Below are positions 50,465 to 64,000 of a DNA stretch of 64,000 nucleotides, piece after piece. The notes below the pieces were generated by a model. That model made no database searches, was not told the DNA's origin, and saw only the letters and a list, made by a program, of their open reading frames with translations. Origin of the DNA: Bradyrhizobium sp. 200 (GTDB lineage: Bacteria > Pseudomonadota > Alphaproteobacteria > Rhizobiales > Xanthobacteraceae); the NCBI RefSeq assembly GCF_023100945.1, contig NZ_CP064689.1, positions 8,786,001-8,850,000 of the forward strand, written 5' to 3'. How positions within the stretch are numbered: position 1 is the first letter of the stretch; each line of letters starts with the position of its first letter. Made by a program: the position numbers and the translations under genes.

Positions 50465-51794
50465 TCATTCGCGGCACGACGCTATCGCGGCACGACGACG
50501 TATTTGTCCGCCTTCAGCAGGAGGCCGGCCTCCAGCGGGGGCTTGATATCGAACATCTGCGCCCCGTTCCTGAAATGATAGATCCGCCGGATCCGATAGG
50601 TATCGGGGTTCGACGCGGCGACCTCGCATTGATTGGCGGACAGCCAGAACCGCGTGCGCGCGTGGCCATTGGTCGTCTTGATTTCCATCAGCCGCTCCTC
50701 GCCGTCGGGCTCGAACGATCTGACATCGTAGCCCAGATGGTCGCCGTCGAGGTCCGAAACCCACCTCACCTTGGCCGCGCGCGCCGTTATGCAGCGCGAA
50801 TGCCCCTAACCCGGCGTCGAACACCGGACCGCCTGACGATCCTTTCTGAGTTGACGCAGTATGCCGCAGCCGGCTGCCGGTCTCATTGGGCCCGAGCGCT
50901 GTCCCGATCGCGAACTGCAATTCTCCGCGCAAAGGGTGCTGCAGCACCATTAGCGGCGACCCGGCAGGGGCCTGGGGTATTGTTCTCTTGAGCCCGATAA
51001 AACCGCGCGTTGCGCCGCCGGGCAGTGAGTCGTCGGCTACCCGTTCGTCAAGACGGACCAAGGCAAAGTCCAGCTGTTGCATGTTTGGCTCGCCGCTTCC
51101 GCCGGATAGCTCGACGCCGGCGGCTGGGCTTGATCGCAGAACTGGCTTGCCATTGGCCTGCACCCGTGCGACGCGGCCGGCATTGTTAACGGCAGCGGTG
51201 CTGTCCAACAGGTCAAAGCGGAAGCGCAGCTCCGTGGCCGCTGTCGGGGCCTCGATCGCTCGCTTGAGATTATGCCAGTTGGTCAGGACAAGGTCGGGGC
51301 CAACCAGAAAACCAGTGCCGATACCAGGAGGACTGAGGTCGGCGTAGTCGATCCTGCACACCGCGCGAACCCGCCGCTGCATCGTGTCCAGTCGATTGAT
51401 CGCCCCGCCGGGCAGCATCTGCTCTAGTTCGGCCCGCAAGTCCGCTGTGATAGCTCCGGTACCTGCCGCTACGTGCAAGACTTCCTGTGCTGATGCAGTG
51501 TGTATGAAGGAACGCACGACTTCCTGCAGCGCTTCCGCATCAGGCTTGTCTTGCTGAACTGCGCCGAGCAGGCTGGGGAGCCAACCTTCCCCGTTCGCGC
51601 GCGCCAGCAGCTGCCCCCACCTGGAGCGGGAAGGTGGACGGAATCGGGACGAGGTTGAACACCGTCCTGTTCTCGAGATAATCAGTGAGCGTCTGGTTAA
51701 GCTCGGCGAGAGCGTTAGCGCCGGCACCTTCGTATGCTGCCACAATGGCCTTGCGTATCTCCCGCAGCTGAGGTCCTGTAAGAACCAGCCTCAA
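50465..51794 (-). pseudogene. EAD1-trypsin-DUF3883 protein, interrupted
   Basis: Starts with TTG 51794 (GGAGG upstream). Residues 1-55, LTGPQLREIRKAIVAAYEGA and on to NQTLTDYLENRTVF, are an effector-associated domain (EAD1), a small adaptor that recruits effectors to signalling NTPases. One extra base in the C5 run at 51614-51618 changes frame; removing it gives LQVGQLLARANGEGWLPSLL. The trypsin-like domain follows: His in VLTNWHN, Asp in QQLDFALVRL, Ser in QKGSSGGPVFD. Near 50790 the frame changes again into WVSDLDGDHLGYDVRSF and ERLMEIKTTNG, a DUF3883 nuclease-like domain, probably joined by a deletion. Third gene of the minus-strand unit. Confidence 0.78.
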
Positions 51795-52066: not shown

Positions 52067-52974
52067 CTATGCTCCGGCTCCGCCGTCCGGGCCTACATCG
52101 ATCCAGCGCTGGATCGTCTCGAACAGGTCGGGAGTAATGCGGGGCGCCGAGTTGGCCACGACGCCCAGATGGCCGGGCGTGCCGCCGGTGCCATAAGCAT
52201 GTATGGCGATGCCGATGGGGGCCGCGATGTCGCTGTCGACCGTGAAAGCAGGTGCTCCGCTCTGTCCCGGCGTTGTGTCCACGTCATAATAGACGCGTAG
52301 CGCCGTCGTAGCGATGACCTTGCTTCGGTGCGCCCACATCTCGCGGCCAAAGCCCTTCGCGGCCTCGCCGGGATAGCCGGCAACATGGACGTACCGATCC
52401 ATCAGATCGGCATCCGGACGGACCGCGATGCCGAACCAGCCGAGCCGGTCGCCGAGGGCATCCGCGGCCTCGAGATGAATAGCGCCGATGTCGGCGTCCC
52501 CTTCTGTTCAAGGCTCATGGTCGGATCGTTCCTGGTCCACGCCTCCAGGGCGGAAAAGCGTGTAGCTGTGACCGAGCCGTGCTTTGCGGCGTCGCGGTTC
52601 ATGCCCGGTGTGACGACAATGCGTTGGGCCTAGCCCCCGATCATCTCGTGATACACGCAGTGCCCGGCGGTGAGCAGGGTGCGCGGGCCGACCAGCCAGC
52701 CGGTACCTACCGCTGCGCCGCGCGGGCCTTCGATGCGAAGGTTGCAGATCATGCACCACGGCATAAGGTCCGTGTCGAGAATGCGGACGCGTTCGTCCTC
52801 TCCGATGATCGACTCCAGGACCGCTGGGGGCGCTTTCCCGCGGCGCACGAAATATTCGGCGGAGGGTGACAGCGGTACTTTCTTGGCACCCACTTTGGGT
52901 GCTCGTCCGAGCGGCGCACTTTCCAGCTCTGCAGTTTCGACTGGGAGTGGATTACTCGATGACTGCAGCGGCAT
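52067..52974 (-). pseudogene. V8-like (glutamyl endopeptidase) serine protease, nonsense mutation plus frameshift
   Basis: ATG 52974 has a perfect ribosome site (GGAGGG). The protease fold reads RGAAVGTGWLVGPRTLLTAG with catalytic His in AGHCVY. At 52630-52632 an in-frame TAG interrupts IGG-stop-AQRIVVTPG; relatives have GGWA there, so TGG to TAG is likely. Near 52498-52501 one base is lost in a C-run (in another frame: ADIGAIHLEAADALGD). The end has YDVDTTPGQSGAPAF with the catalytic serine. Intact relatives are about 300 residues. First gene of the minus-strand unit with the beta-sandwich and EAD1-trypsin genes. It has no obvious signal peptide, which fits an intracellular role. Confidence 0.85.
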
Positions 52975-53375
52975 ACAAACCCTCCTACCGCAAACGTCAG
53001 GTCGATTGGCAAAGCAACCATAAGCTGTCCCCGCTTTGACGACAAGGTGCTTTACGTAGGGCTCTCTCGCGGACGGAGGTCTAGTCTCTGGCACATTTGA
53101 CGTCCGTTCGGACAGCACTAAGCTGACGTGCAATACTGATCGAGGCCTGCACCGACGAGGAAGTCCGACAAGACAATATGTCTCGGATTTCGCTCGGGGG
53201 AGGCTCGCACGTTAAGATGATGGACCATGACAGACGCCGTTCGAGCCGCTTCGATGAAGCCTCACCACACGATTCGCTTCCTGGAAGCGACGGCACGGGA
53301 TCGGTAGGATGATCACCATTCATCGCGGCCCCGCTCCGACTGAGCAAGCTGCGCCTCAATTCGATTGCTTACGCC
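52975..53375. promoter_or_regulatory. Divergent promoter region between two peptidase units
   Basis: About 400 bases between the V8-like and S8 peptidase genes. It should contain both promoters. No operator-like repeat stands out. Confidence 0.4.
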
Positions 53376-54560
53376 ATGATTAGGATCCTGTCTGAGGACG
53401 GCAAGACTCTCGTGCCCTGTACCGTCACCGAGGTCAGGGACGAGAGCACGGGCTTCATCCCGATTACCCAACCAACGAACTGCGATGGCACGTACACCTT
53501 ACGTGACCCCGGCCTTACGCGGTGCTTGAGGATAGAGCCGCACGACGCTCATTGGGGCATGTTCGCTGACATTGCATCCCCCGACGATCAGATCGAGTGC
53601 ATATCTATGGGCGATCCGGATCTGCCATGGTGGCAGGTTGCCGTGGGAGCGAGGACACCGGCGGTCCACTCCGCTCTCGGGATCAAGATCGGTATTATCG
53701 ACGTCCTGTTCAGGCCGGGACCAAACATGATGAATTTTACCTTGGCCGAGCCGGAGCGGCTTGAGGAATTTTCGTCCGTTTCCGCTGACGGTCACGGCCG
53801 CCAAGTGAGCGCGATCGTGGCAGGTCGCGGGCCGGGCAAATACCGGGGTCTGGCCCGCGATGCCGATGTGTTTTTCGTCGACGCGTCACGAGCGGACGAT
53901 ACCGGCGCGGCGTCGGAAACCGGCTTGGACCATGCGCGGGTCGTCGATGGTATCCGAAACCTGTGGGAAAGCTTCGACGTCGACATCATCAATCTATCCT
54001 GCGGCTTCGGTACCCAGGATCTTCCGGACCTCGAAGACGTCATCAAAGAGGCGGCAGACAATGGGGTGATCTGCATCTGCGCCGCGGGCAATTCCGTGGA
54101 GCTCCCGATCGAGGCTCCCGCCCGCTATGAAGCGGCCGTCGCGGTGTGCGGCGTCGGATTTACTGGGGTCGCCGACTTTCCGACGTTCATGGGTCGCCTC
54201 GCGCGCAAGGCCGAACGGCAAAATTGGCCATTCGGATGCGGGATCCAGACATGGCCTCAGGGTGTTCCCTTTGTGCATTCCGGCACGGCTTGGGGATTGG
54301 AACTCAATGCCTTCGCGCCCAGTCTTGGTATCATCATCCGGTCGGAAAATGGCCGCATTCGGGAGTATTATGGAACATCTTATGCGGCCCCCATCGTTGG
54401 CAGCGTCCTTGCTTGTGCGCTCTCCCGTGACCAAATATACCGGAAACTCTCGGGTCGGAGCCGATATTTCCATGCACTGCAACGGCTTCAGGAGATATCC
54501 GTCAGTGTGGGCCTGGCCCCGAAGGGGTCTCAGGCAGGAATGCCTTTGCTGCAGCGTTAA
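53376..54560 (+). CDS. S8-family (subtilisin-like) serine peptidase
   Basis: A 394-residue peptidase without a signal peptide, so probably intracellular. Residues 1-90 are a beta-rich N-terminal region without the usual inhibitor prodomain. The catalytic domain has Asp109 in KIGIIDVLF, His140 in DGHGRQVSAIVAG, the oxyanion Asn239 in CAAGNS and Ser335 in YYGTSYAAPIVGSVLA, all intact. The sequence between 115 and 160 is unusually short. The following small gene may supply the missing prodomain. It opens the plus-strand unit and is divergent from the V8-like protease set. Confidence 0.9.
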   Translation: MIRILSEDGKTLVPCTVTEVRDESTGFIPITQPTNCDGTYTLRDPGLTRCLRIEPHDAHWGMFADIASPDDQIECISMGDPDLPWWQVAVGARTPAVHSALGIKIGIIDVLFRPGPNMMNFTLAEPERLEEFSSVSADGHGRQVSAIVAGRGPGKYRGLARDADVFFVDASRADDTGAASETGLDHARVVDGIRNLWESFDVDIINLSCGFGTQDLPDLEDVIKEAADNGVICICAAGNSVELPIEAPARYEAAVAVCGVGFTGVADFPTFMGRLARKAERQNWPFGCGIQTWPQGVPFVHSGTAWGLELNAFAPSLGIIIRSENGRIREYYGTSYAAPIVGSVLACALSRDQIYRKLSGRSRYFHALQRLQEISVSVGLAPKGSQAGMPLLQR

Positions 54561-54572
54561 GGTTTGTGTGGT

Positions 54573-54893
54573 ATGAGTCCTACGACGCGGCCGAGGAGAG
54601 TGAAAAAACGGTCCATGAGCGCCAAAATGCGTGAATACGTGGTTTCGCTCCGTCGCGGAGCCGACATGAAGGTGGTGGTTCCAAGCGGGTCCTTGACGGA
54701 TGCCGTGAAGGAAACGCATGTCCACATCAAGGAGGTTATGCCGACGGGAAAGACCGTTGTCGTCGCCGTGAGCAGTCCGAGCGAGCTTGAGCTCCTGCGC
54801 GCACGACTCGACCGCACGTGTCATGTGGTGGAACGAACCATCGGCCACGTGCTGAACGGCAGCCACTCGGCCGGCCCCCCTCGTCGCTTTTGA
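54573..54893 (+). CDS. Small protein resembling a stand-alone I9 peptidase inhibitor
   Basis: A 106-residue protein, 12 bases after the S8 peptidase. After a basic N-terminus it reads MREYVVSLRRGADMKVVVPS, then ETHVHIKEVMPTGKTVVVAV and SSPSELELLRARLDRTCHVV. This alternation is like inhibitor I9 prodomains (a first YVV strand, a later strand, then S-xEL-xLR...V-xVE). Stand-alone I9 proteins act as inhibitors or folding helpers of subtilisins. I base this on pattern only. Start is ATG 54573; ATG 54615 is possible. Confidence 0.6.
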   Translation: MSPTTRPRRVKKRSMSAKMREYVVSLRRGADMKVVVPSGSLTDAVKETHVHIKEVMPTGKTVVVAVSSPSELELLRARLDRTCHVVERTIGHVLNGSHSAGPPRRF

Positions 54894-55417: not shown

Positions 55418-56740
55418 ATGTCTTCGCCAGTTCCGAATTCATCCACCGTCGTGGTTTTGGCCGACGAAATCTCAAGGATCTTCAGCGGCTACGAGGCGAT
55501 CGAAAACATCCGGGAAGTCGCGGCATCGGATGACGTAATGTCCGACGTCGAGAAGGCGGCCATATTCGCCGGCTTGGGAAATACCATCGACAAGTTGCGT
55601 CGCGCTGAGAAGAAAATGGGCGCGAAAGTCCTGAGCACCCCGAACGATGCGCGGGCGGCCCGGCTACAGAGCCTGATAGCGTCCGGCGAAGCTGCCAAGC
55701 TGCTGCTGCAACCACTCGCGACGGGAGGGTTCGAAGCGCTCTTCGATACCAACGATTGGAGCGGTTGGGCCACGGTCGCATGGGCGAAACTTACCCATCT
55801 CAGGAAACATCCTCTGCCCGTTCCCGGAACCGTCAACCCGACACCATTCGCCGAACGTGCGCGCGTGGCGTTGCTCGGCGACTGGGGCACGGGAATGTAT
55901 GGTGCGCCGCACATCGCCAACGCCGTAAGGGCAGACAGCGACGGCTTCGAGCTGCTGCTGCACCTCGGTGATGTCTACTACTCCGGCACACTGGACGAGA
56001 TCAACGGCCGATTCCTCGCCTTGTGGCCTGCCCGTAACGGGGCCACGAGCCGGGCATTGAACTCGAACCACGAGATGTTCTCTGGCGGAGAAGCCTACTT
56101 CACCAAGACGCTGCCGCAGTTCGGCCAGACAAGCAGTTACTTTGCCTTCCAGAACGCACACTGGACATTGATCGGTCTCGATGTCGCCTATCTCGACCAC
56201 AACATGGACGACGAACAAGCCTGGTGGGTGAGCGAAGTCGTGCGCAACGCGGGCGGACGCAAGGTCGTCTTCTTCTCGCATCACCAACTCTATTCCAACA
56301 TCGAAAAAGAGCAGGGTGATCGCCTTTGGTCACACGCCACCTTTGGGCAACTCTTGCGCAGCAAACGGGTGTTCGCCTGGTACTGGGGTCACGAACATCG
56401 GTGCACCATTTTCGAGGAGCCGGACCGCAATTTCGGTATTTACGGCCGCTGCATAGGCCACGGCGGTATGCCGCAGGCGCGCGATCTCACCAAGGATCTC
56501 CCTCGCGCCGCCGACCCGCGCTACGCGGCGGCCGATTGGCGCATCTGCGCCGAAAAGACCGTGGGTCAGAACGTTCTTTCTCGAGCCGTCGTCCTCGAAG
56601 GCCGCAACCCCTACATCACGGGCGAGGAGGACAAGTTCACGCCGCACGGCTTCTCGGTCCTCGAATTCGATGGACCGCACCTTCGCGAGGACGTTCGCGA
56701 CGCGACAGGAGCCGTCATCTATTCTAGGCAACTTTGCTGA
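55418..56740 (+). CDS. Calcineurin-like metallophosphoesterase with helical N-terminal region
   Basis: A 440-residue phosphoesterase. The first 135 residues are helical and unrecognised, possibly an adaptor. The catalytic domain has the five family motifs: LLGDWGTG (Asp155), HLGDVYYSG (Asp185), SNHEMF (Asn217, His218), FFSHHQLYS (His288) and WYWGHEHRC (His325, His327). It could cleave phosphomonoesters, phosphodiesters or nucleotides; there is no signal peptide, so it acts inside the cell. ATG 55418 is chosen over two earlier in-frame ATGs because the extension has no content. First gene of a tight three-gene operon with a trypsin-like protease and a caspase, suggesting that it makes, removes or responds to a nucleotide signal. 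Confidence 0.88.
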   Translation: MSSPVPNSSTVVVLADEISRIFSGYEAIENIREVAASDDVMSDVEKAAIFAGLGNTIDKLRRAEKKMGAKVLSTPNDARAARLQSLIASGEAAKLLLQPLATGGFEALFDTNDWSGWATVAWAKLTHLRKHPLPVPGTVNPTPFAERARVALLGDWGTGMYGAPHIANAVRADSDGFELLLHLGDVYYSGTLDEINGRFLALWPARNGATSRALNSNHEMFSGGEAYFTKTLPQFGQTSSYFAFQNAHWTLIGLDVAYLDHNMDDEQAWWVSEVVRNAGGRKVVFFSHHQLYSNIEKEQGDRLWSHATFGQLLRSKRVFAWYWGHEHRCTIFEEPDRNFGIYGRCIGHGGMPQARDLTKDLPRAADPRYAAADWRICAEKTVGQNVLSRAVVLEGRNPYITGEEDKFTPHGFSVLEFDGPHLREDVRDATGAVIYSRQLC

Positions 56741-56750
56741 GGCCCGTCTC

Positions 56751-57695
56751 ATGCCGTTTGATCAGGCCAGGCTTCTTGCGCGGGCGCAACGTGCATTAGG
56801 CGCAAACTCGCCGACCGATGCTGTGCGTAAGGTCCGCTCGATCGTCGGATCGAAGAACATCCCTGCAAGCGAAAAGGGCGCACAAATCGCAATGGACGCC
56901 CTGCTCGATGGCCGGGCGCCGACACCGGCACAGATTTCCGCCCTCGAAATCGTCATCCGGCTGATGAGACCCGTGGTGCTGACCGCGAACGCCGAACTCG
57001 GCGATCTTCCGGAGACCGGAAACAAGGATCTGCAACCCGAAGCATTGAAGTCCGCATGGACGCACTTCCGCCGACTGGTGGCTCCCCTGATCGGTTCGAT
57101 CGGGCGCATCGAAGATGCGTCGGGCAATCATGTCGGAACCGGCTTCGTCGCCGGCGAGAACATGATCGCGACCAATCGGCACGTGCTCGCGGTACTCACC
57201 GCCGGAGGAGACGTGCTCGCGCCTTCGCAATGCAGGATCTGTTTCAAGCAGGAGTCGGGCCGCATTAACGCTAAAACCGACTACGCGAATATCGACCGGG
57301 TGATCGACTTCCACCCGCGGTATGACATCGCATTGCTCGGATGCAACGTCGGCGGCAGAGCCTCCGTGGATTTCGAGGACTCTCTGCCGGAGATCGGATC
57401 GACAGTCTGCACGATCGGATATCCTGGCGAGGACAAGAAATACAACCCGCTGTTCCTCACGCCGGTCTTCAACGGCGCCTTCGGCGTCAAGAGCGCCTCG
57501 CTCGGCGAAACGCTGGATGGCACGGAGGGCGTCGACCTCTTCCACGACTGTTCCACCACACGGGGCAATTCGGGTTCGCCGGTGTTCGCGCTATCGACCG
57601 CGAAAGTCGTCGGAATTCACCGGTCGGGCTTCTTCATGTACCGGAACGAAGCGGTTTCGTCGCGCGTGCTGAAAACGATAGGACGGCCGCAATGA
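56751..57695 (+). CDS. Trypsin-like serine protease with helical N-terminal domain
   Basis: A 314-residue protease. Residues 1-105 are a helical domain (MPFDQARLLARAQRALGANS, then SEKGAQIAMDALLDG) that I do not recognise. The trypsin-like domain has His144 in ATNRHVLA, Asp192 in PRYDIALLG and Ser274 in TRGNSGSPVF, so the triad is intact. There is no signal peptide. The ATG is 10 bases after the phosphoesterase stop, and its TGA overlaps the caspase ATG. Trypsin-caspase pairs are known from predicted prokaryotic conflict systems, where one protease may activate the other; cleavage of the caspase by this enzyme is a testable inference. Confidence 0.9.
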   Translation: MPFDQARLLARAQRALGANSPTDAVRKVRSIVGSKNIPASEKGAQIAMDALLDGRAPTPAQISALEIVIRLMRPVVLTANAELGDLPETGNKDLQPEALKSAWTHFRRLVAPLIGSIGRIEDASGNHVGTGFVAGENMIATNRHVLAVLTAGGDVLAPSQCRICFKQESGRINAKTDYANIDRVIDFHPRYDIALLGCNVGGRASVDFEDSLPEIGSTVCTIGYPGEDKKYNPLFLTPVFNGAFGVKSASLGETLDGTEGVDLFHDCSTTRGNSGSPVFALSTAKVVGIHRSGFFMYRNEAVSSRVLKTIGRPQ

Positions 57696-59926
57696 GCCGA
57701 CGCGCGCTAATCATCGCCATCGAGAATTATTCGCTCGTCAACGACAACAGCATCGAGCTCGAGCTGAAAGGGACGCTTTGCCGCGCCCGCCGATTTCGTT
57801 CCTGGTTGACCGAGAAATGGGACAGCGAGGGCGTTCCCAAAAACGAACGGCAGATCATCTTCTGTTCGGAGCCAAAAATCGACGACGAAAGGGGCGCCTC
57901 GATCGACGATATCAAAATCGCGCTCGACGAGCTGCAGACACTCGGCCGGGACATGACGGAAGAATGCTATTTCTACTTTAGCGGCCACGGGTTCAGCTTC
58001 GACAAGAAGGTCACGCGATCCAGCATGCTGATCGCCGCGGACTACCGATCCATGAAGCTTTCGGGAGACCGGTGCGCCAACCTCGACTGGATCGTGCTTT
58101 GGCTGACGATGAACATGGGCGCGGGCCGCCACTATTTTTTCATTGATGCGTGTCGCAACGTCTTCGACGCGAGCGTCATCCAGCCGCCCGATGCGTTGTT
58201 GCCGAACGACCCCGCCAGCGCAGGCGAACCCGATTCCTTTCTACTGCAGTCGTCCCGACCAAAGGAAACCGCTCCGGCCGATGGCACCTTCGCGGATGCC
58301 CTCCTTGACGGCTTGGCCGGTCGCGGCACCGCGAAGATCTGGGACCGATCCGATCCCGGCGCGATGGTGGTGCGGTTCGATACGCTCAGGGACTTCGTCA
58401 AGCAACGTATCAACCGCAAGATCCATCAGAGCGTCAGCGGAGACGGCGGGGATGCGTCGGGTCTGATCCTCAAGTTGAAGCCGCCTCCCCTTTCGAAATG
58501 CACGATCCATCTGATCGGCGGCGAGGCGGCAGGTACCGTGGTCTTCGACGGAGAAAGGACCCATCTGCGCGAGCCGCTGAACGGTGCGTCCAGCCGTTAC
58601 GACGTTCCGCCCGATAATTACAGGATCACGCTCGAACTAGGAGGGACCAGCGTGTCGCCCAAGGAAGCGGTCCTCACGCTGTACGACGATGCCGAAGCGA
58701 CGTTTTCGTTGGATCCTTCGCTGGCTCAGCCGGACCAATCCCAGAAAACGACGGTCATCACCGTTCCGCCGGATACCTCGCTTACCCTTCAAAGCAAGGA
58801 AGGTCGGCCGCTGCGGACGCTTGCGGAAGGGACTCATCGACACATCCCGCGCGGCAAATATGGCGCCGTGCTGAGCGATACCCAAAACAGGGTCATCAGG
58901 TCCGACGAGCTTATTCTTGCCGGCAACGACCCCGTCGACATCGGCGAATGGACCCGCGGTGCAATCCGCAAACTCATTCTCGATCGATTCCCCAAAGATC
59001 CGAACGGCGGCATCATTCTATCTCCGTCCCTGGAAAGAGCCCTCATCGATACCGACCTCGACATCTTGCTGTCCCTATTGGGTGCCGCCAAGATTCTGGA
59101 AGGCGACCCCCGCGTTCCAGCAAACGAAATCGAACGGTTCCCTCTCAACGATTTCGCGTCCGAGAAGCCCGGCTCGTCCCCCGTCTTCGTTCTAGGGGCC
59201 TTCGAAGATGACGAAACGAAGCTGGAGGTTTCCGTACGGCGCACCGGCGCACCGAACTGGACTTTGGCATCGACGTCGGAAATCGCGTCGCTGCGCGACT
59301 TCCGAGCGACGCCGGACGCGGGTCCCCTTCTCGTGTCGTTGAGAAGGGCGGGCGACGCCGTCGCTTACACTCTGACGTCCTTCGCCTTCTCCAATCGCGT
59401 CACCTTGATCACGGTTACGCAAGACAGCGATGGTGGCTTCACCATCGGACAGTACTTCATCCCTCTTGGTCATCTCGCGGCCGAATTCGACTATCCGACA
59501 TCTTCCCGTCATGGAGATCCCTTGTTGGACGTGCTCGCCTCCAGCAGGATGACGCGCTCCTTCCGTCGGCGCAGGAGCGTTTTGAGCGATCTCCAGTTCT
59601 ATTCCGGCAGGGATCTCGTCGAGGGGAACTGGCTGGATCCGCTGGCGATGCTCCTCGCCGCGTACGAAGCGCTTCGGCGCCGGCGACGAGATGGTGACCT
59701 GGCGACTCTGGTTTCGGCCCTAGAAGCTCATTTCAGCGGGATAGCCGACACTGATATTTTATCGTCCAAGTTACGTGATGAGACTTCGCGGCTGGAGAAG
59801 GGCCTTCCAATCTTCATGGACGGTTTCGTCGCAGCAGGCGGATCGGCATCTGACCTTCCGCCGGGGTCCTCGCTGGACTACTCGTCGATTTGGACCGCCT
59901 GGCACGAATTGCCCCCCCGTACATGA
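57692..59926 (+). CDS. Caspase-family (C14) peptidase with long C-terminal extension
   Basis: A 744-residue protein. The N-terminal caspase-like domain (residues 1-270) starts RRALIIAIENY and has the catalytic His99 in YFYFSGHGFS and Cys154 in FFIDACRNVF. Residues about 275-520 contain beta-rich segments (CTIHLIGGEAAGTVVFDGER; SLTLQSKEGRPLRTLAEGTH), perhaps ligand- or target-binding. The C-terminal 150 have GNWLDPLAMLLAAYEALRRR, a helical pattern also seen at the ends of other conflict-system caspases. No signal or membrane segment. ATG 57692 overlaps the protease stop by 4 bases. It probably executes proteolysis that stops growth or kills the cell when triggered. Confidence 0.9.
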   Translation: MSRRALIIAIENYSLVNDNSIELELKGTLCRARRFRSWLTEKWDSEGVPKNERQIIFCSEPKIDDERGASIDDIKIALDELQTLGRDMTEECYFYFSGHGFSFDKKVTRSSMLIAADYRSMKLSGDRCANLDWIVLWLTMNMGAGRHYFFIDACRNVFDASVIQPPDALLPNDPASAGEPDSFLLQSSRPKETAPADGTFADALLDGLAGRGTAKIWDRSDPGAMVVRFDTLRDFVKQRINRKIHQSVSGDGGDASGLILKLKPPPLSKCTIHLIGGEAAGTVVFDGERTHLREPLNGASSRYDVPPDNYRITLELGGTSVSPKEAVLTLYDDAEATFSLDPSLAQPDQSQKTTVITVPPDTSLTLQSKEGRPLRTLAEGTHRHIPRGKYGAVLSDTQNRVIRSDELILAGNDPVDIGEWTRGAIRKLILDRFPKDPNGGIILSPSLERALIDTDLDILLSLLGAAKILEGDPRVPANEIERFPLNDFASEKPGSSPVFVLGAFEDDETKLEVSVRRTGAPNWTLASTSEIASLRDFRATPDAGPLLVSLRRAGDAVAYTLTSFAFSNRVTLITVTQDSDGGFTIGQYFIPLGHLAAEFDYPTSSRHGDPLLDVLASSRMTRSFRRRRSVLSDLQFYSGRDLVEGNWLDPLAMLLAAYEALRRRRRDGDLATLVSALEAHFSGIADTDILSSKLRDETSRLEKGLPIFMDGFVAAGGSASDLPPGSSLDYSSIWTAWHELPPRT

Positions 59927-60002: not shown

Positions 60003-63000
60003 TCAGAGCGGCACGGAACACTCCTCCGAAAAGGGCTCATCCTCTAGATACAGCCTCCATTCTCCAGGGGTGAGCCTTCGGGTCACACGAGTCCGAGCCT
60101 CACTCACGAGTTCGTCGAAGTCCACAGGCTCGATGCTGACGCCGTCATGACTTGCCACGGCAATCCGCTTGCCGTTGGAGTCGAATGCCAGTGCCTCGAT
60201 GTCGCCGCTCCTCTGGAGCGTGCATAGCTTTTGGTCATTTGCGACGTCCCATACCGTCACCTTTCGTCCTAAGGTTGCCGCCGCCACAACTGGCCGCTGC
60301 CTGGCCACAGCCATATGCATCACCCTGTCGCCAGCCGAGACGGTAACGCGCGGCTCCGGGAACTCGGGATCCCAGACTACAAGCCGCGATCCGCACGCGA
60401 GGACGATCGGGCCGCGCTCCGGCCCGGCGAAATTCATCTCCTCCGGCGCATCGTCCGATAGGGTTATAGAAGCTTCCCACGGAGTAATAATGCTCCGCAC
60501 GGAAATGTTTTTCGCGTTTCGGGCGGCGATTCGGGTACCCTCTTGATCGAACAGGACGGATCCCGAAGTACAGTCACAAGGCAGGGTCCCAGAGTCCCAT
60601 CGATCGCGAACCCGCAAGACGCGAACGACACTGTCGCCAGTGGTAGCTACGTATAGCTCTCCATCGGGCCCGAATGCCATAGCGAGGGGTTTCCCGAGGT
60701 CCTTCGCAGTTTCCCGTTCGCGGCGCGACCTTAGGTCCCAGACGCGCACAACACCGTCTTCCCCTGCAATCGCGATTCGAGACTCCGCGCTGTCAAAAGC
60801 CACATGGATAATCGGAGCGGTGTGCTCGATGTGAAAAACGTGGGAACAGCTAGGCAGCCCCCGCACGTGCACACGGTGTTTTCCCCAACGCTCCTTGCCG
60901 CCTGCACCTATTAGCTCAGCCTCACGTTCAACCTCGGCTAGTAATCTCCCTGCTGAAAGTTGCAGTCCCTTGTCGACGTAACCGGGTTCGAGCATCGTGC
61001 TCAGTTGACCGGTGCCGACGTCCCAGACGAAGAGATGATTTCCCAGAACCCCCACGAGTTGCTTGCCATCCCCTGAGAACTCGAGTTCGCTGGGCACGCC
61101 TTTCGTATCGAGGCCCGGCAGTCGCCAGGGGAGTAACTGTCCCTCGTCCTGGCAAGTGAGGAATTGGCGTTCTTGAGGCGAGAAGGCGACTTGTGTCACT
61201 CCGGATCCCCTCGCCCGGGCCAGGAGCCGCCCCGTGCGCGTCTCCCAGACCTCCACCATTCCCCGGGAGAATCTCGAGCCCCCAGTCAAAGCGCGAGTGC
61301 CATCGGGGCTCAACACAACCGATGGATTCTCCAGTATGGGAGTTCGTGATCGCTCTTTGCCCGTCTTCCCCTCTACAAACGCGACCTGACGTCTCACCCC
61401 CATTGGCGTTCCCATTACGGCGCCGCCGGCCGAGACGGAAAGGGCTACAAGGTCCCCGCCGAAGCCGAGAACTTGGCGGTCGTCGAGACGAGCGATCTCG
61501 GCGCCAGTTTCTGCGTCGAAAAGCAGTGTTGCGTGAGGAAGGCCCGTCGACACGCAGAAAACCGAACCGTCACAGGCAGATGCAATGGATGGAGAAATGC
61601 CGTCGTACGGCACCGTGGCCAGCGGCTTGTCGATGGAGTCGATCCTCCAGAGTCGAATAACGTTGCGCTTTTCTCCATCGGCCGTCGAGTGCCAGTGACC
61701 GTCTGGACCAACGAAGTGGGTATGGCTGTTGGTGTTCGGGCTTGCCGCCGTAGCGACGATCCGCTCAGATCCCGAGAATACGACCGCGTGGTAGCCCGCG
61801 CTCTCGGGGTGGAGTATCCTCGCTATTGCCTGCGAACTTCGCACGTCCCACACTTCGAGAACGTAGTTATCTTGCCAGGCGACTAACCGACCGCTCGGGC
61901 TCAAGACAGCGTTCCGGAGCTGGGAGGGCTTCAGGGGAATCCCGGCCACCCGCTTCTGCTTGGCTATGTCCCAAACAATGACACCCTCACCGCTAAGTGT
62001 CGTCGCTGCGCGCAAGCGGTCGATGCGCACATCGCGGATGCCGCCGCGCGCATGTCGCAAGCAGGCGGCCTCCCTCCACCCGTCGCACTCGAGGATTCGG
62101 ACCGTGTGTTCCGCGTCCGCCAGAGCAAGATAACGGCCAAGAAGCCATCCTTTGTCCGCCCGGTAACCGAGCTGAATAGTTTCCGTCAATAGCGGAAGGT
62201 GCTCAATAGCTGCCCGGAGCACGTCTGCCGACTCTATAGAGGGAGACAGACGGATCGATTCGATCGCCAACAGCACTGCCAAGTCGATTTGGTCAGGCTG
62301 TTGATGCCGGATCAGCTCGGCCTGCGCGGCGAGCTTGTGGGCGAGTGCGCGGCGGTATAGACGCCTGGTCTCGACAAGACGCTGCTGGCGCTCCTCGGCG
62401 AGCGCTTGGGCCTGCTCCAATTCCCGCTGGCGTGCGGCTACTTTCTCCTGTTCGACCCTCTCAATGGCCTTCCGACTGGCATAGACCAACGCCGGCAGGT
62501 CAGGCCCATAACCCAGTTCAGTGGCGTCAGGACTGTTCAGCCATCCTTCAGCTTCGGCCAACTCGACCGTGTCCAGCAGGCCGCCATCGCCCTTCCCCAG
62601 TCGAATCCATTCCTTCGCCTTCGCGTCGAGCCGCCGTCGCGTCTTTTCCTTATCCCTTCGGTTGCTTATCCATTCATGCAGTTGTGGCCAGCCCGTGATC
62701 AGCGTCTCGTGGGCGATGTCGACTCTCTTGCCTGCTTCCTTTTCCTCACCGCTCTGTGTTAGCAGACGATTGTCTGCCAAATGTCGCAGTGTCTTAGCAA
62801 ACGGTAGATCCTCGCTCAGCGTTGCGAGCTCAGCCTCTGTCTGTTGACGGCGGGTATCCGCCCTGCCTTCGCCAAACTGCACAAGACGGAGAAATATGCG
62901 CCGGGCGATTGCCTTTTCATCCATGGTGAGGTCAGCCAGCGTTGCGTCGGCCTTCTTCACCATCGCCACGGTGAGCCCACTTCGGTCCTCACTCCCTAGC

Positions 63001-64000
63001 CGCTTGTAGGCGCTGAGGGTCAACAAACGTCTCTGCATCTCGCCCCACAAAAGCACCATCGCCTCCTGCACCAGGGGCAGGATTCCAGGCTCATCTGCCG
63101 CGTCCGCCAAGATCCGGTCGACCAACCCTGCTTCCAGATAGACGCTTACATCAACCGCCGGCCTCTCAATCGCAAGACGCAATGCCTCTCCCCGCAACGG
63201 GACAATTTCCAGCCGCTGGCTCTTGTCGATCGGCCAAAGGTCACTGTTCATGAGATCGGGGTAGAAATCTGCACGCATGGCGAATAGCAAGGCGCACTTC
63301 TGCACCGCGTGCAAACCTTTTAAGGCGGCAATGAAACGCGCCTGCTCCTTCCACTCGGTCTGGGTAAAAAGTTCCTCAAACTGGTCTATCACGAGCAGGA
63401 GTCGTTCGGCTGGTGTGTTGGCCTTCAGCAAACTGTCCACACACTCACCGGATCTCGAAAGGTCTCCACAAATCCGGGCCAGTTCTTGCATTGGTCGACT
63501 TCCCGGTCGGATACTTCGCACCAGCCAGCAACCGGGCGACCAGAAACCAGGCGAGAAGTCGCGCCTTTCGGAGAGCTTTGGCAGCAAACCGGCAAAGATC
63601 AGCGAGGACTTGCCCGACCCGGACGGGCCGATCACCCAGAGGCAGCGTTGATTGCGAAAATGCTGCAGCATCTGCTTGATCTCGTCTTCGCGTCCGTAAA
63701 AGAATCGGGCATCTTTCTCCCTGAATGGGATCATGCCGGGATAGGGACACGGGATGCGCTCCGGTTTCGGTTCTGGCTGAGCAAGCAACTCACGCAGGCG
63801 AGCAACCTCAGATTCCCAATTGTTCTGTTCCGTACAATCCAAGCGGACGCGGAATTCGATGCGCAGCGGCAATGAACAATCGCGCTCTCTGAGCAACGGA
63901 ATCAGGCGCTCCTGCTGCTCCGCCACAGTAGCGTACGATGCCAACTGCTCTCCGAATGTGGACCACTGGTCGGCGAGATAAGCATGACTGAGCACAAGGA
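60003..64000 (-). CDS. TIR-nSTAND NTPase-WD40 protein, partial
   Basis: The gene runs off the right edge: the frame stays open to the last base, and the first visible residues (VLSHAYLADQWSTFGEQLAS, then IPLL and RIEFRVRLDC) are the C-terminal half of a TIR domain. Residues about 85-450 are a novel-STAND NTPase: PYPGMIPFREKDARFFYGRE, Walker A GPSGSGKSS (about 123-131), Walker B LLLVIDQFEELF (about 199-210), and RADFYPDL. A helical coiled linker follows (about 500-560), then some 700 residues of WD40-like blades (repeated W-D motifs such as VVVWDPE and VWDVANDQK) to the stop. STAND proteins sense an invader through their repeats, oligomerise, and release an effector; TIR effectors often degrade NAD+ or make nucleotide signals. 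Visible part 1,332 residues; convergent with the caspase operon. Confidence 0.9.
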   Translation of the reverse strand, partial: LVLSHAYLADQWSTFGEQLASYATVAEQQERLIPLLRERDCSLPLRIEFRVRLDCTEQNNWESEVARLRELLAQPEPKPERIPCPYPGMIPFREKDARFFYGREDEIKQMLQHFRNQRCLWVIGPSGSGKSSLIFAGLLPKLSERRDFSPGFWSPGCWLVRSIRPGSRPMQELARICGDLSRSGECVDSLLKANTPAERLLLVIDQFEELFTQTEWKEQARFIAALKGLHAVQKCALLFAMRADFYPDLMNSDLWPIDKSQRLEIVPLRGEALRLAIERPAVDVSVYLEAGLVDRILADAADEPGILPLVQEAMVLLWGEMQRRLLTLSAYKRLGSEDRSGLTVAMVKKADATLADLTMDEKAIARRIFLRLVQFGEGRADTRRQQTEAELATLSEDLPFAKTLRHLADNRLLTQSGEEKEAGKRVDIAHETLITGWPQLHEWISNRRDKEKTRRRLDAKAKEWIRLGKGDGGLLDTVELAEAEGWLNSPDATELGYGPDLPALVYASRKAIERVEQEKVAARQRELEQAQALAEERQQRLVETRRLYRRALAHKLAAQAELIRHQQPDQIDLAVLLAIESIRLSPSIESADVLRAAIEHLPLLTETIQLGYRADKGWLLGRYLALADAEHTVRILECDGWREAACLRHARGGIRDVRIDRLRAATTLSGEGVIVWDIAKQKRVAGIPLKPSQLRNAVLSPSGRLVAWQDNYVLEVWDVRSSQAIARILHPESAGYHAVVFSGSERIVATAASPNTNSHTHFVGPDGHWHSTADGEKRNVIRLWRIDSIDKPLATVPYDGISPSIASACDGSVFCVSTGLPHATLLFDAETGAEIARLDDRQVLGFGGDLVALSVSAGGAVMGTPMGVRRQVAFVEGKTGKERSRTPILENPSVVLSPDGTRALTGGSRFSRGMVEVWETRTGRLLARARGSGVTQVAFSPQERQFLTCQDEGQLLPWRLPGLDTKGVPSELEFSGDGKQLVGVLGNHLFVWDVGTGQLSTMLEPGYVDKGLQLSAGRLLAEVEREAELIGAGGKERWGKHRVHVRGLPSCSHVFHIEHTAPIIHVAFDSAESRIAIAGEDGVVRVWDLRSRRERETAKDLGKPLAMAFGPDGELYVATTGDSVVRVLRVRDRWDSGTLPCDCTSGSVLFDQEGTRIAARNAKNISVRSIITPWEASITLSDDAPEEMNFAGPERGPIVLACGSRLVVWDPEFPEPRVTVSAGDRVMHMAVARQRPVVAAATLGRKVTVWDVANDQKLCTLQRSGDIEALAFDSNGKRIAVASHDGVSIEPVDFDELVSEARTRVTRRLTPGEWRLYLEDEPFSEECSVPL

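What the first reader, a model, noticed from the sequence alone, without database searches (positions are those of the whole stretch)
55418..59926. Tight metallophosphoesterase-trypsin-caspase operon: candidate proteolytic conflict system
Three intact genes (gaps of 10 bases and a 4-base overlap) encode an intracellular phosphoesterase, a trypsin-like protease and a caspase-like protease, all with complete catalytic residues and all with unrecognised helical or beta-rich extra regions. Caspase-trypsin associations are known from predicted prokaryotic conflict systems, but I do not recall a described system with this trio. A model: the phosphoesterase handles a nucleotide signal, the trypsin-like protease is the switch, and the caspase is the executioner.
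Basis: partly seen in the sequence, partly recalled or inferred. Interest (0 to 1): 0.85.

Follow-up and report, generated by a model that had tools for sequence, protein, structure and literature searches.

The report
Phosphatase, trypsin and caspase immune-like trio
Three neighbouring genes in a soil bacterium encode a phosphatase-like enzyme and two protein-cutting enzymes that travel together through related bacteria, and they look like a built-in defence or self-destruct module in which the cutters probably switch on the phosphatase.

Summary
Window 55418-59926 holds three intact, tightly packed genes: a calcineurin-fold phosphoesterase (MPE, 440 aa), a V8/trypsin-type protease (314 aa) and a caspase (744 aa), all with catalytic residues. 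They form a real unit: all 6 loci returned by a trypsin-profile genome scan carry the same order with gaps of -4 to +15 bases, and the three proteins diverge in step (Mantel r 0.95-0.98 over 10 trios).

Conflict-system genes (TIR, nSTAND1, trypsin-NucA) lie beside the trio in 4 of 8 loci.

The MPE's nearest solved relatives are mammalian purple acid phosphatases, and relatives of this MPE recur in other protease systems: TIR-caspase-MPE (4 genomes), trypsin-NucA then MPE (2), one trypsin-NucA-MPE fusion, MPE-CHAT (1); yet 0 of 12 plasmid loci with related trypsins have one. I read the MPE as the effector, probably gated by proteolysis, and the non-catalytic part of the caspase as the best sensor candidate. 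Activity, cleavage and phage effects are untested. I found no description of this trio in print. New variant of a known kind.

The parts
55418..56740 (+). MPE: calcineurin-fold metallophosphoesterase of purple-acid-phosphatase type with about 145 aa of mostly helical N-terminal extension; predicted effector
56751..57695 (+). Trypsin-like serine protease (V8-like), N-terminal helical module plus protease domain
   Evidence: PF13365 56.2 bits; triad H144/D192/S274; best PDB matches by sequence are V8/glutamyl endopeptidases E 4e-9; related to trypsins in trypsin-NucA and trypsin-PLD fusions; not modelled
57692..59926 (+). Caspase-like cysteine protease (residues 1-250) followed by two beta-rich segments, a helical stretch, a beta stretch and a helical C-terminus; predicted initiator protease and candidate sensor
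53376..54560 (+). Subtilase (S8) gene upstream; accessory seen in the closest clade only
   Evidence: PF00082 64.7 bits; 84% and 78% identical copies upstream of the trio in L015 and L016, no match to it in L017-L020; L019 has a different subtilase gene nearby
54564..54893 (+). Small conserved protein (about 85-109 aa) between subtilase and MPE, function unknown
   Evidence: 89-91% identical in L015 and L016 at the same place; no Pfam family
60003..64000 (-). TIR-nSTAND1-WD40 protein (1402 aa; runs 211 bases past the window end), convergent neighbour; a caspase-TIR gene lies just beyond the window end on the same strand
   Evidence: L009:11003-15211 PF13676, PF20703, WD40; L009:15232-16482 PF00656 plus PF13676
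50465..51745 (-). EAD1-like/trypsin protein, context
   Evidence: PF13365 55.8 bits; EAD1 PF19955 E 3.5e-4 but below its cut-off (21.4 vs 24.2 bits)

Best explanation
The three genes form one inherited, three-protein conflict module (probably phage defence by killing or arresting the infected cell). Two proteases, a trypsin-like and a caspase-like one, sit in a relay that ends on a purple-acid-phosphatase-like metallophosphoesterase. Proposed flow: the non-catalytic two thirds of the caspase sense the trigger, directly or through a partner; the caspase becomes active and cuts the trypsin and/or the MPE; the MPE, held back by its N-terminal extension, is released and hydrolyses a phosphate-containing target (nucleotide, nucleic-acid end, phospholipid or phosphoprotein) to stop growth. 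Shown here: the genes, their conservation as a unit, intact catalytic residues, modelled folds of MPE and caspase core, and repeated association of this MPE family with proteases. Inferred: the conflict role, order of cleavage, the gate, the sensor and the target.
For: Unit: same order, gaps -4 to +15, in 6 of 6 loci returned by the trypsin-profile scan, plus the window; an eighth copy (L039) is cut by the contig end after MPE and the first 46 aa of the trypsin. Among listed hits on contigs of 5 kb or more, the MPE and trypsin lists share 32 contig lengths where about 0.17 are expected. Co-divergence: Mantel r 0.97, 0.98, 0.95 over 10 trios, 0 of 2000 permutations as high; 0.79 for MPE-trypsin over 35 contigs. 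The Roseovarius copy stands near an ileS-like gene (by eye), with no further match to my query set nearby (its neighbours were not run through Pfam), so three proteins may suffice. MPE as effector: of 12 genomes with this MPE (of 315 family genomes, own included), 3 are trio loci (one cut by its contig end), 4 are TIR-caspase-MPE, 1 is MPE-CHAT, 1 patatin-MPE, 1 has nSTAND1 upstream, 2 have no evident partner. Of the 6 trypsin-NucA loci picked in the family by the trypsin alone, 4 have an intact MPE relative within 6 kb, one of these fused (trypsin-NucA-MPE, 1229 aa), 1 has only fragments, 1 none. Conflict context: clear in 4 of 8 loci (window, L017, L018, L039). Precedents: in canu a caspase activates a gated nuclease (PMC12799240, passages read); mammalian TRAP, the fold relative, is a latent phosphatase activated by proteases (PMC7081696, passages read). 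Evolution rate: against the six more distant trios the window's caspase is 31-40% identical, its trypsin 46-59%, its MPE 56-63%.
Against: No activity, cleavage or phage data exist. The trio MPE lacks the longer loop at the place of TRAP's repression loop that most other protease-linked MPEs here have (20 vs 30 residues), so the TRAP mechanism cannot simply be carried over; the gate in the N-terminal extension is a guess. The link of MPE to trypsin-NucA is not general: 0 of 12 plasmid stretches around related trypsins (NucA or PLD fusions for the most part) hold an MPE match. MPE relatives without an evident protease exist: 2 of 12 family loci and 4 of 4 viral-contig loci without a match to the trypsin or caspase profile. 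A caspase of the trio's family without its own MPE and trypsin exists (L016:15440-17632). Conflict neighbours are not evident in L015 (beyond the shared subtilase) and L020. In the caspase only residues 241-440 evolve faster than the core; the part from 441 on is about as conserved as the core, which weakens the sensor argument for that part. The genes are rare (own genome only of 398 phylum genomes; own plus one partial match of 385 class genomes), so statistics rest on few lineages. PADLOC has no model for the MPE and only weak or generic ones for the proteases.
Confidence: 0.47

Rival explanations
1. One reading: the MPE degrades or makes a nucleotide signal that controls the system, the trypsin is the switch and the caspase is the executioner that digests cell proteins.
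Against: No cyclase, TIR or other signal maker was seen as a constant part of the trio loci. The closest folds are purple acid phosphatases. A trypsin-NucA-MPE fusion puts the MPE in line with a nuclease effector.
Confidence: 0.2
2. The MPE is a brake or immunity factor (a phosphatase that keeps the proteases or their targets in the off state).
For: MPE is the first gene of the trio and the most conserved one (mean column identity 66% against 62% and 41%); a kinase-kinase-phosphatase defence module exists (PMC11341870, abstract in the listing).
Against: No kinase in the trio; MPE sits last in the TIR-caspase-MPE units and at the C-terminus of the fusion, an effector-like place.
Confidence: 0.13
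3. Not defence: a stress or development-linked proteolysis module of large soil genomes, without a role against invaders.
For: The host genome has 17 caspase genes; the Roseovarius and L015 copies show no clear defence neighbours (with Pfam for two L015 neighbours).
Against: Very patchy distribution and conflict-system neighbours in 4 of 8 loci.
Confidence: 0.2

Closest known systems
NucA-trypsin conflict systems ('System 3', Kaur, Burroughs, Iyer and Aravind 2020, PMC7159879; passages and that section read)
   Same: Alphaproteobacterial, several peptidases (trypsin, subtilase) coupled to a phosphoester-cleaving effector; the trio's trypsin is related to these trypsins, in several alignments including the N-terminal helices; such genes stand head to head with the trio in L017 and L018 and on the contig of L039.
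   Different: The trio has no NucA; it has an MPE and a caspase instead. Section 32 of that paper, read whole, mentions neither.
canu, caspase-activated nuclease system (Tuck et al. 2025, PMC12799240; passages read)
   Same: Caspase with MALT1-like core followed by beta-rich domains, paired with a metal-dependent phosphoester hydrolase; three genes in the prototype.
   Different: Hydrolase there is a metallo-beta-lactamase-fold nuclease with gating insertions; the passages name no trypsin in canu. Here the hydrolase is calcineurin-fold, and the trypsin is a constant partner.
TIR-caspase Thoeris-like systems (Rousset et al. 2025, known to me from recall and from its citation in PMC12799240)
   Same: Caspase beside TIR genes; L018 has a ThsB-like TIR plus caspase just downstream of the trio, and L068-L071 have TIR-caspase-MPE.
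   Different: No TIR gene belongs to the trio itself.
Mammalian purple acid phosphatase TRAP/ACP5
   Different: TRAP's gate is a loop of around 20 residues (PMC7081696); the trio MPE has a shorter loop there, a 145-residue N-terminal extension and no signal peptide by eye.

Membership tests
Caspase-like peptidases C14 | Caspase fold with His-Cys dyad | tested here: met
Trypsin/V8-like serine proteases S1 | Trypsin domain with His-Asp-Ser triad | tested here: met
   PF13365 and PF00089 above cut-off; H144, D192 in 121 of 121, S274 in 119 of 121; fold not modelled
Purple acid phosphatases | Calcineurin fold with motifs GDxG, GDxxY, (G)NH(D/E), xxxH, GHxH (motifs recalled) | tested here: met
Purple acid phosphatases | Binuclear metal centre and phosphatase activity | not testable with these tools
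   Needs protein
Purple acid phosphatases | TRAP-type long repression loop | tested here: not met
   Segment of 20 residues in the trio MPEs (4 of 4 aligned) and in L066; 28-33 residues in the other 11 of the 16 aligned relatives; place of the loop recalled
NucA-trypsin conflict systems (System 3) | NucA-type endonuclease core component | tested here: not met
   No PF01223 in the trio proteins; NucA only in neighbours of other loci
NucA-trypsin conflict systems (System 3) | Trypsin-like peptidase core component | tested here: met
   The A1 profile matches 7 NucA- or PLD-fused trypsins at E 6e-31 to 4e-43, 5 of them with alignments starting at profile positions 10-45; the NucA-linked trypsins of L017 and L018 match only weakly, E 3e-10 and 2e-9
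canu | Caspase with MALT1-like core | tested here: met
canu | Metallo-beta-lactamase-fold nuclease with gating insertions | tested here: not met
   The hydrolase is PF00149 with a purple-acid-phosphatase fold
TIR-caspase (type IV Thoeris-like) | TIR gene paired with the caspase | tested here: not met
   No TIR among the trio proteins; TIR neighbours were seen only in the window region and L018
EAD/EACC/ternary systems | Effector-associated domain on the components | tested here: not met
   No EAD family of Pfam at E up to 1 in the three proteins; EAD1 only in the neighbour 50465-51745, below cut-off

The most novel reading that the evidence does not exclude
A so far unnamed class of bacterial immune effector: an intracellular purple-acid-phosphatase-like pro-phosphatase that is switched on by partner proteases, and that has been captured by several architectures (MPE-trypsin-caspase, TIR-caspase-MPE, trypsin-NucA-MPE, MPE-CHAT). 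It would be a bacterial parallel of caspase-activated nucleases and of cathepsin-activated TRAP.
Probability: 0.32. Interest if true: 0.85.

Novelty: new variant of a known kind. Interest (0 to 1): 0.62.

Why it matters
It adds a fixed three-protein module to the proteolytic conflict systems of bacteria and points to a phosphoesterase family that turns up beside caspases, a CHAT protease and trypsins. If the MPE is released by cleavage, protease-gated effectors in bacterial immunity are not limited to nucleases and pores. The prediction is directly testable with three genes and three point mutants, and the four TIR-caspase-MPE units give a second test bed.

Tried and rejected
Nucleotide-signal role for the MPE: not excluded, put as a rival; the fold and context evidence lean to effector. 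Carrying over the TRAP repression loop: rejected for the trio, because the loop is short. Shared contig length as proof of linkage: a proxy, used only for contigs of 5 kb or more; the coincidence at 2615 bases is false, since the two genes would not fit. P0113, a 737-aa MPE-caspase hybrid that lacks the trypsin, comes from a short contig and looks like a deletion or an assembly error; not used. Island signs: trio GC 60.3% against 59.6-64.6% for the window's 4-kb bins; one tRNA gene in the 7 loci scanned, in L018, none in L009: no integration site shown or excluded. Plasmids: no hit for the caspase; 17 records hit by the trypsin, all under 60% identity; I opened 12 of the 17 and none holds an MPE match, one (L037) holds a clear caspase and one (L038) a weak caspase-like match. 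Viral contigs: 4 loci with an MPE relative, none with a match to the trypsin or caspase profile. The caspase beyond its core, the N-terminal part of the MPE and the trypsin were not folded alone, so nothing is claimed about whether their folds are known; the structural match lists covered caspase residues 1-263 and MPE residues 71-440 only. Chance estimate: with the own-genome density of caspases (17 in 9.49 Mb) the script gives P about 1.6e-9 for 6 of 11 non-own MPE loci beside a caspase-clan protease; only 5 of 11 are PF00656 caspases, the sixth is CHAT, and the loci are not independent lineages, so the figure overstates the case. L011 and L016 are one contig, L018, L021 and L055 another, L023, L039 and L056 a third; each was counted once. 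Of the two MPE loci called partnerless, one neighbour of L073 was run through Pfam and none of L074, beyond the BLAST and profile search. The Panoptes paper that my last two searches returned uses the words in other senses (PMC12657218, passages read).
Full report
What is there. The window lies at 8786001-8850000 of a 9.49-Mb single-contig genome. The three genes are intact, on one strand, with gaps of 10 and -4 bases. Pfam recognises all three above the curated cut-offs. PADLOC has no model for the phosphoesterase and only weak or generic protease and caspase models for the others. NCBIfam names none of them above its cut-offs.

It is a unit. A profile of 24 trypsin homologues scanned against genome contigs returned 6 loci, and all 6 carry MPE, trypsin and caspase in this order and strand: two MAGs (Hyphomicrobiales, Xanthobacteraceae), Bradyrhizobium sp. 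Gha, an uncultured Bradyrhizobium, Afipia massiliensis and Roseovarius aestuarii. With the window that makes 7 complete trios; gaps between genes are -4 to +15 bases in all 7 (some starts chosen by homology). An eighth (L039) is cut by the end of its contig inside the trypsin. In the non-redundant protein set, the listed MPE hits (120 of 1977) and trypsin hits (120 of 324) share 38 contig lengths, 32 of them at 5 kb or more where about 0.17 are expected; MPE-caspase share 11 and trypsin-caspase 9 (one of these the own genome) at 5 kb or more. This is a proxy for linkage. The caspase list (71) is short because the search needs shared words: the Afipia caspase, for example, is present but its contig length is not among those listed. 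Over 10 trios (7 loci, 3 contigs) the distance matrices correlate with r 0.97 (MPE-trypsin), 0.98 (MPE-caspase) and 0.95 (trypsin-caspase), none of 2000 permutations reaching that; over 35 contigs MPE-trypsin gives 0.79. Species history alone can give such correlations, so this shows co-inheritance, not contact.

It is rare and patchy (own genome counted in each figure): the caspase in 2 of 100 relatives, the trypsin profile in 8 of 391 family genomes, of which 2 are the trio trypsin, the MPE in 1 of 398 phylum genomes and 2 of 385 class genomes, the second a partial match, the caspase profile in 2 of 397 order genomes, the second without the caspase domain in the matched frame.

Relatives of the parts. 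The trypsin profile also finds trypsins fused to NucA (PF01223) or PLD (PF13091) domains: 7 at E 6e-31 to 4e-43, 5 of them in alignments that run upstream of the protease core into the N-terminal helices; the NucA-linked trypsins beside the trio in L017 and L018 are more distant, E 3e-10 and 2e-9 (Pfam for some). These are the NucA-trypsin systems of Kaur et al. 2020 (PMC7159879, section read). In the Mesorhizobium plasmid locus L037 a caspase gene lies directly before such a trypsin-PLD gene. I opened the surroundings of all 6 family loci that carry a NucA-linked trypsin. Four have an intact relative of the window's MPE nearby: L040 and L041 as the next gene, L042 as the C-terminal part of one 1229-aa trypsin-NucA-MPE protein, L039 as part of a trio 5.7 kb away. 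L043 has fragments and L044 none. The control goes the other way: of 12 plasmid stretches around related trypsins, none holds an MPE match. In L017 and L018 a trypsin-NucA gene stands head to head with the trio, about 105 and 180 bases away.

The reverse search, MPE profile in 315 family genomes, found 12. Three are the trio (own, G303, and G133 cut by the contig end). Four (G157, G200, G148, G286) are units with a TIR gene 56-64% and a caspase 41-44% identical to the TIR and caspase flanking the Afipia trio, followed on the same strand by the MPE (Pfam for caspase and MPE of one of the four). One has a CHAT-domain gene overlapping the MPE, one a patatin gene overlapping it, one an nSTAND1 gene two genes upstream, and two have no evident partner. 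The metal-site residues examined are the same in all 16 MPEs aligned from these contexts, apart from one Phe for Tyr188. These facts make the MPE look like a phosphoester hydrolase effector that protease systems recruit, as they recruit NucA, PLD and metallo-beta-lactamase nucleases.

Context. In the window there are, besides the trio, an EAD1-like/trypsin gene (50465-51745), a broken trypsin gene (52067-53133), a subtilase and a small gene that also precede the trio in L015 and L016, a convergent TIR-nSTAND1-WD40 gene and, past the window end, a caspase-TIR gene. Over the 8 trio loci, clear conflict-system neighbours were seen in 4 (window, L017, L018, L039); L016 has a second caspase and a dCTP-deaminase-like gene, L019 a subtilase; L015 and L020 show none beyond L015's shared subtilase. 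Not every neighbour was run through Pfam.

How it probably works, and how sure. I put about 0.8 on a conflict or cell-death module and 0.47 on the fuller statement that the proteases release the MPE as effector. Precedents are canu, where a caspase activates a gated nuclease (PMC12799240, passages read), and TRAP, a latent phosphatase activated by cysteine proteases, with trypsin also tested as an activator (PMC7081696, passages read). Against a simple copy of TRAP: the trio MPE has 20 residues where most other protease-linked MPEs have 30 at that loop.

Prior description. Eight full-text searches of the held library on the combination, and two on Thoeris caspases and TRAP, gave no paper whose listing or read passages describe a phosphoesterase-trypsin-caspase operon. 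The two eLife papers (PMC7159879, PMC8195603; passages read) list calcineurin, trypsin and caspase domains as separate components of conflict systems. The library lacks most subscription journals, and supplementary tables could not be read, so earlier mention cannot be excluded.

Noticed in passing
L068:6288-9837, L069:5442-9037, L070:6075-9658, L071:5632-9225: Four unnamed family genomes carry TIR, caspase and the same type of phosphoesterase on one strand (L071 also a ThsB-like TIR): a TIR-caspase system with an added MPE.
   Followed up: partly
L042:4445-8134: One 1229-aa protein joins trypsin, NucA endonuclease and the phosphoesterase.
   Followed up: yes
window 52067-53133: Two open pieces of a trypsin-like gene on the minus strand in different frames, apparently a decayed protease gene between the EAD1-type trypsin and the subtilase.
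   Followed up: no
window 54564-54893: Small protein between subtilase and MPE, conserved in L015 and L016; a Ti-plasmid trypsin-NucA locus (L050) also has a subtilase followed by an 80-aa gene, which gave no BLAST match to it. Perhaps a subtilase inhibitor or propeptide-like protein.
   Followed up: partly
G000 whole genome: The genome has 17 caspase-domain genes; apart from the trio caspase only one of them matched the trio caspase in a protein search.
   Followed up: no
L016:15440-17632: A second caspase of the trio's own family, with its C-terminal half but without its own MPE and trypsin, 2.3 kb from the trio and next to a dCTP-deaminase-like gene.
   Followed up: partly
L033-L036: Relatives of the phosphoesterase occur in contigs classed as viral, without a match to the trypsin or caspase profile; whether they are phage-borne or host DNA is open.
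   Followed up: no
P0280: A 1146-aa caspase of this family ends in a TPR-S (sensor) domain, a hint that the C-terminal side is the sensing side.
   Followed up: partly
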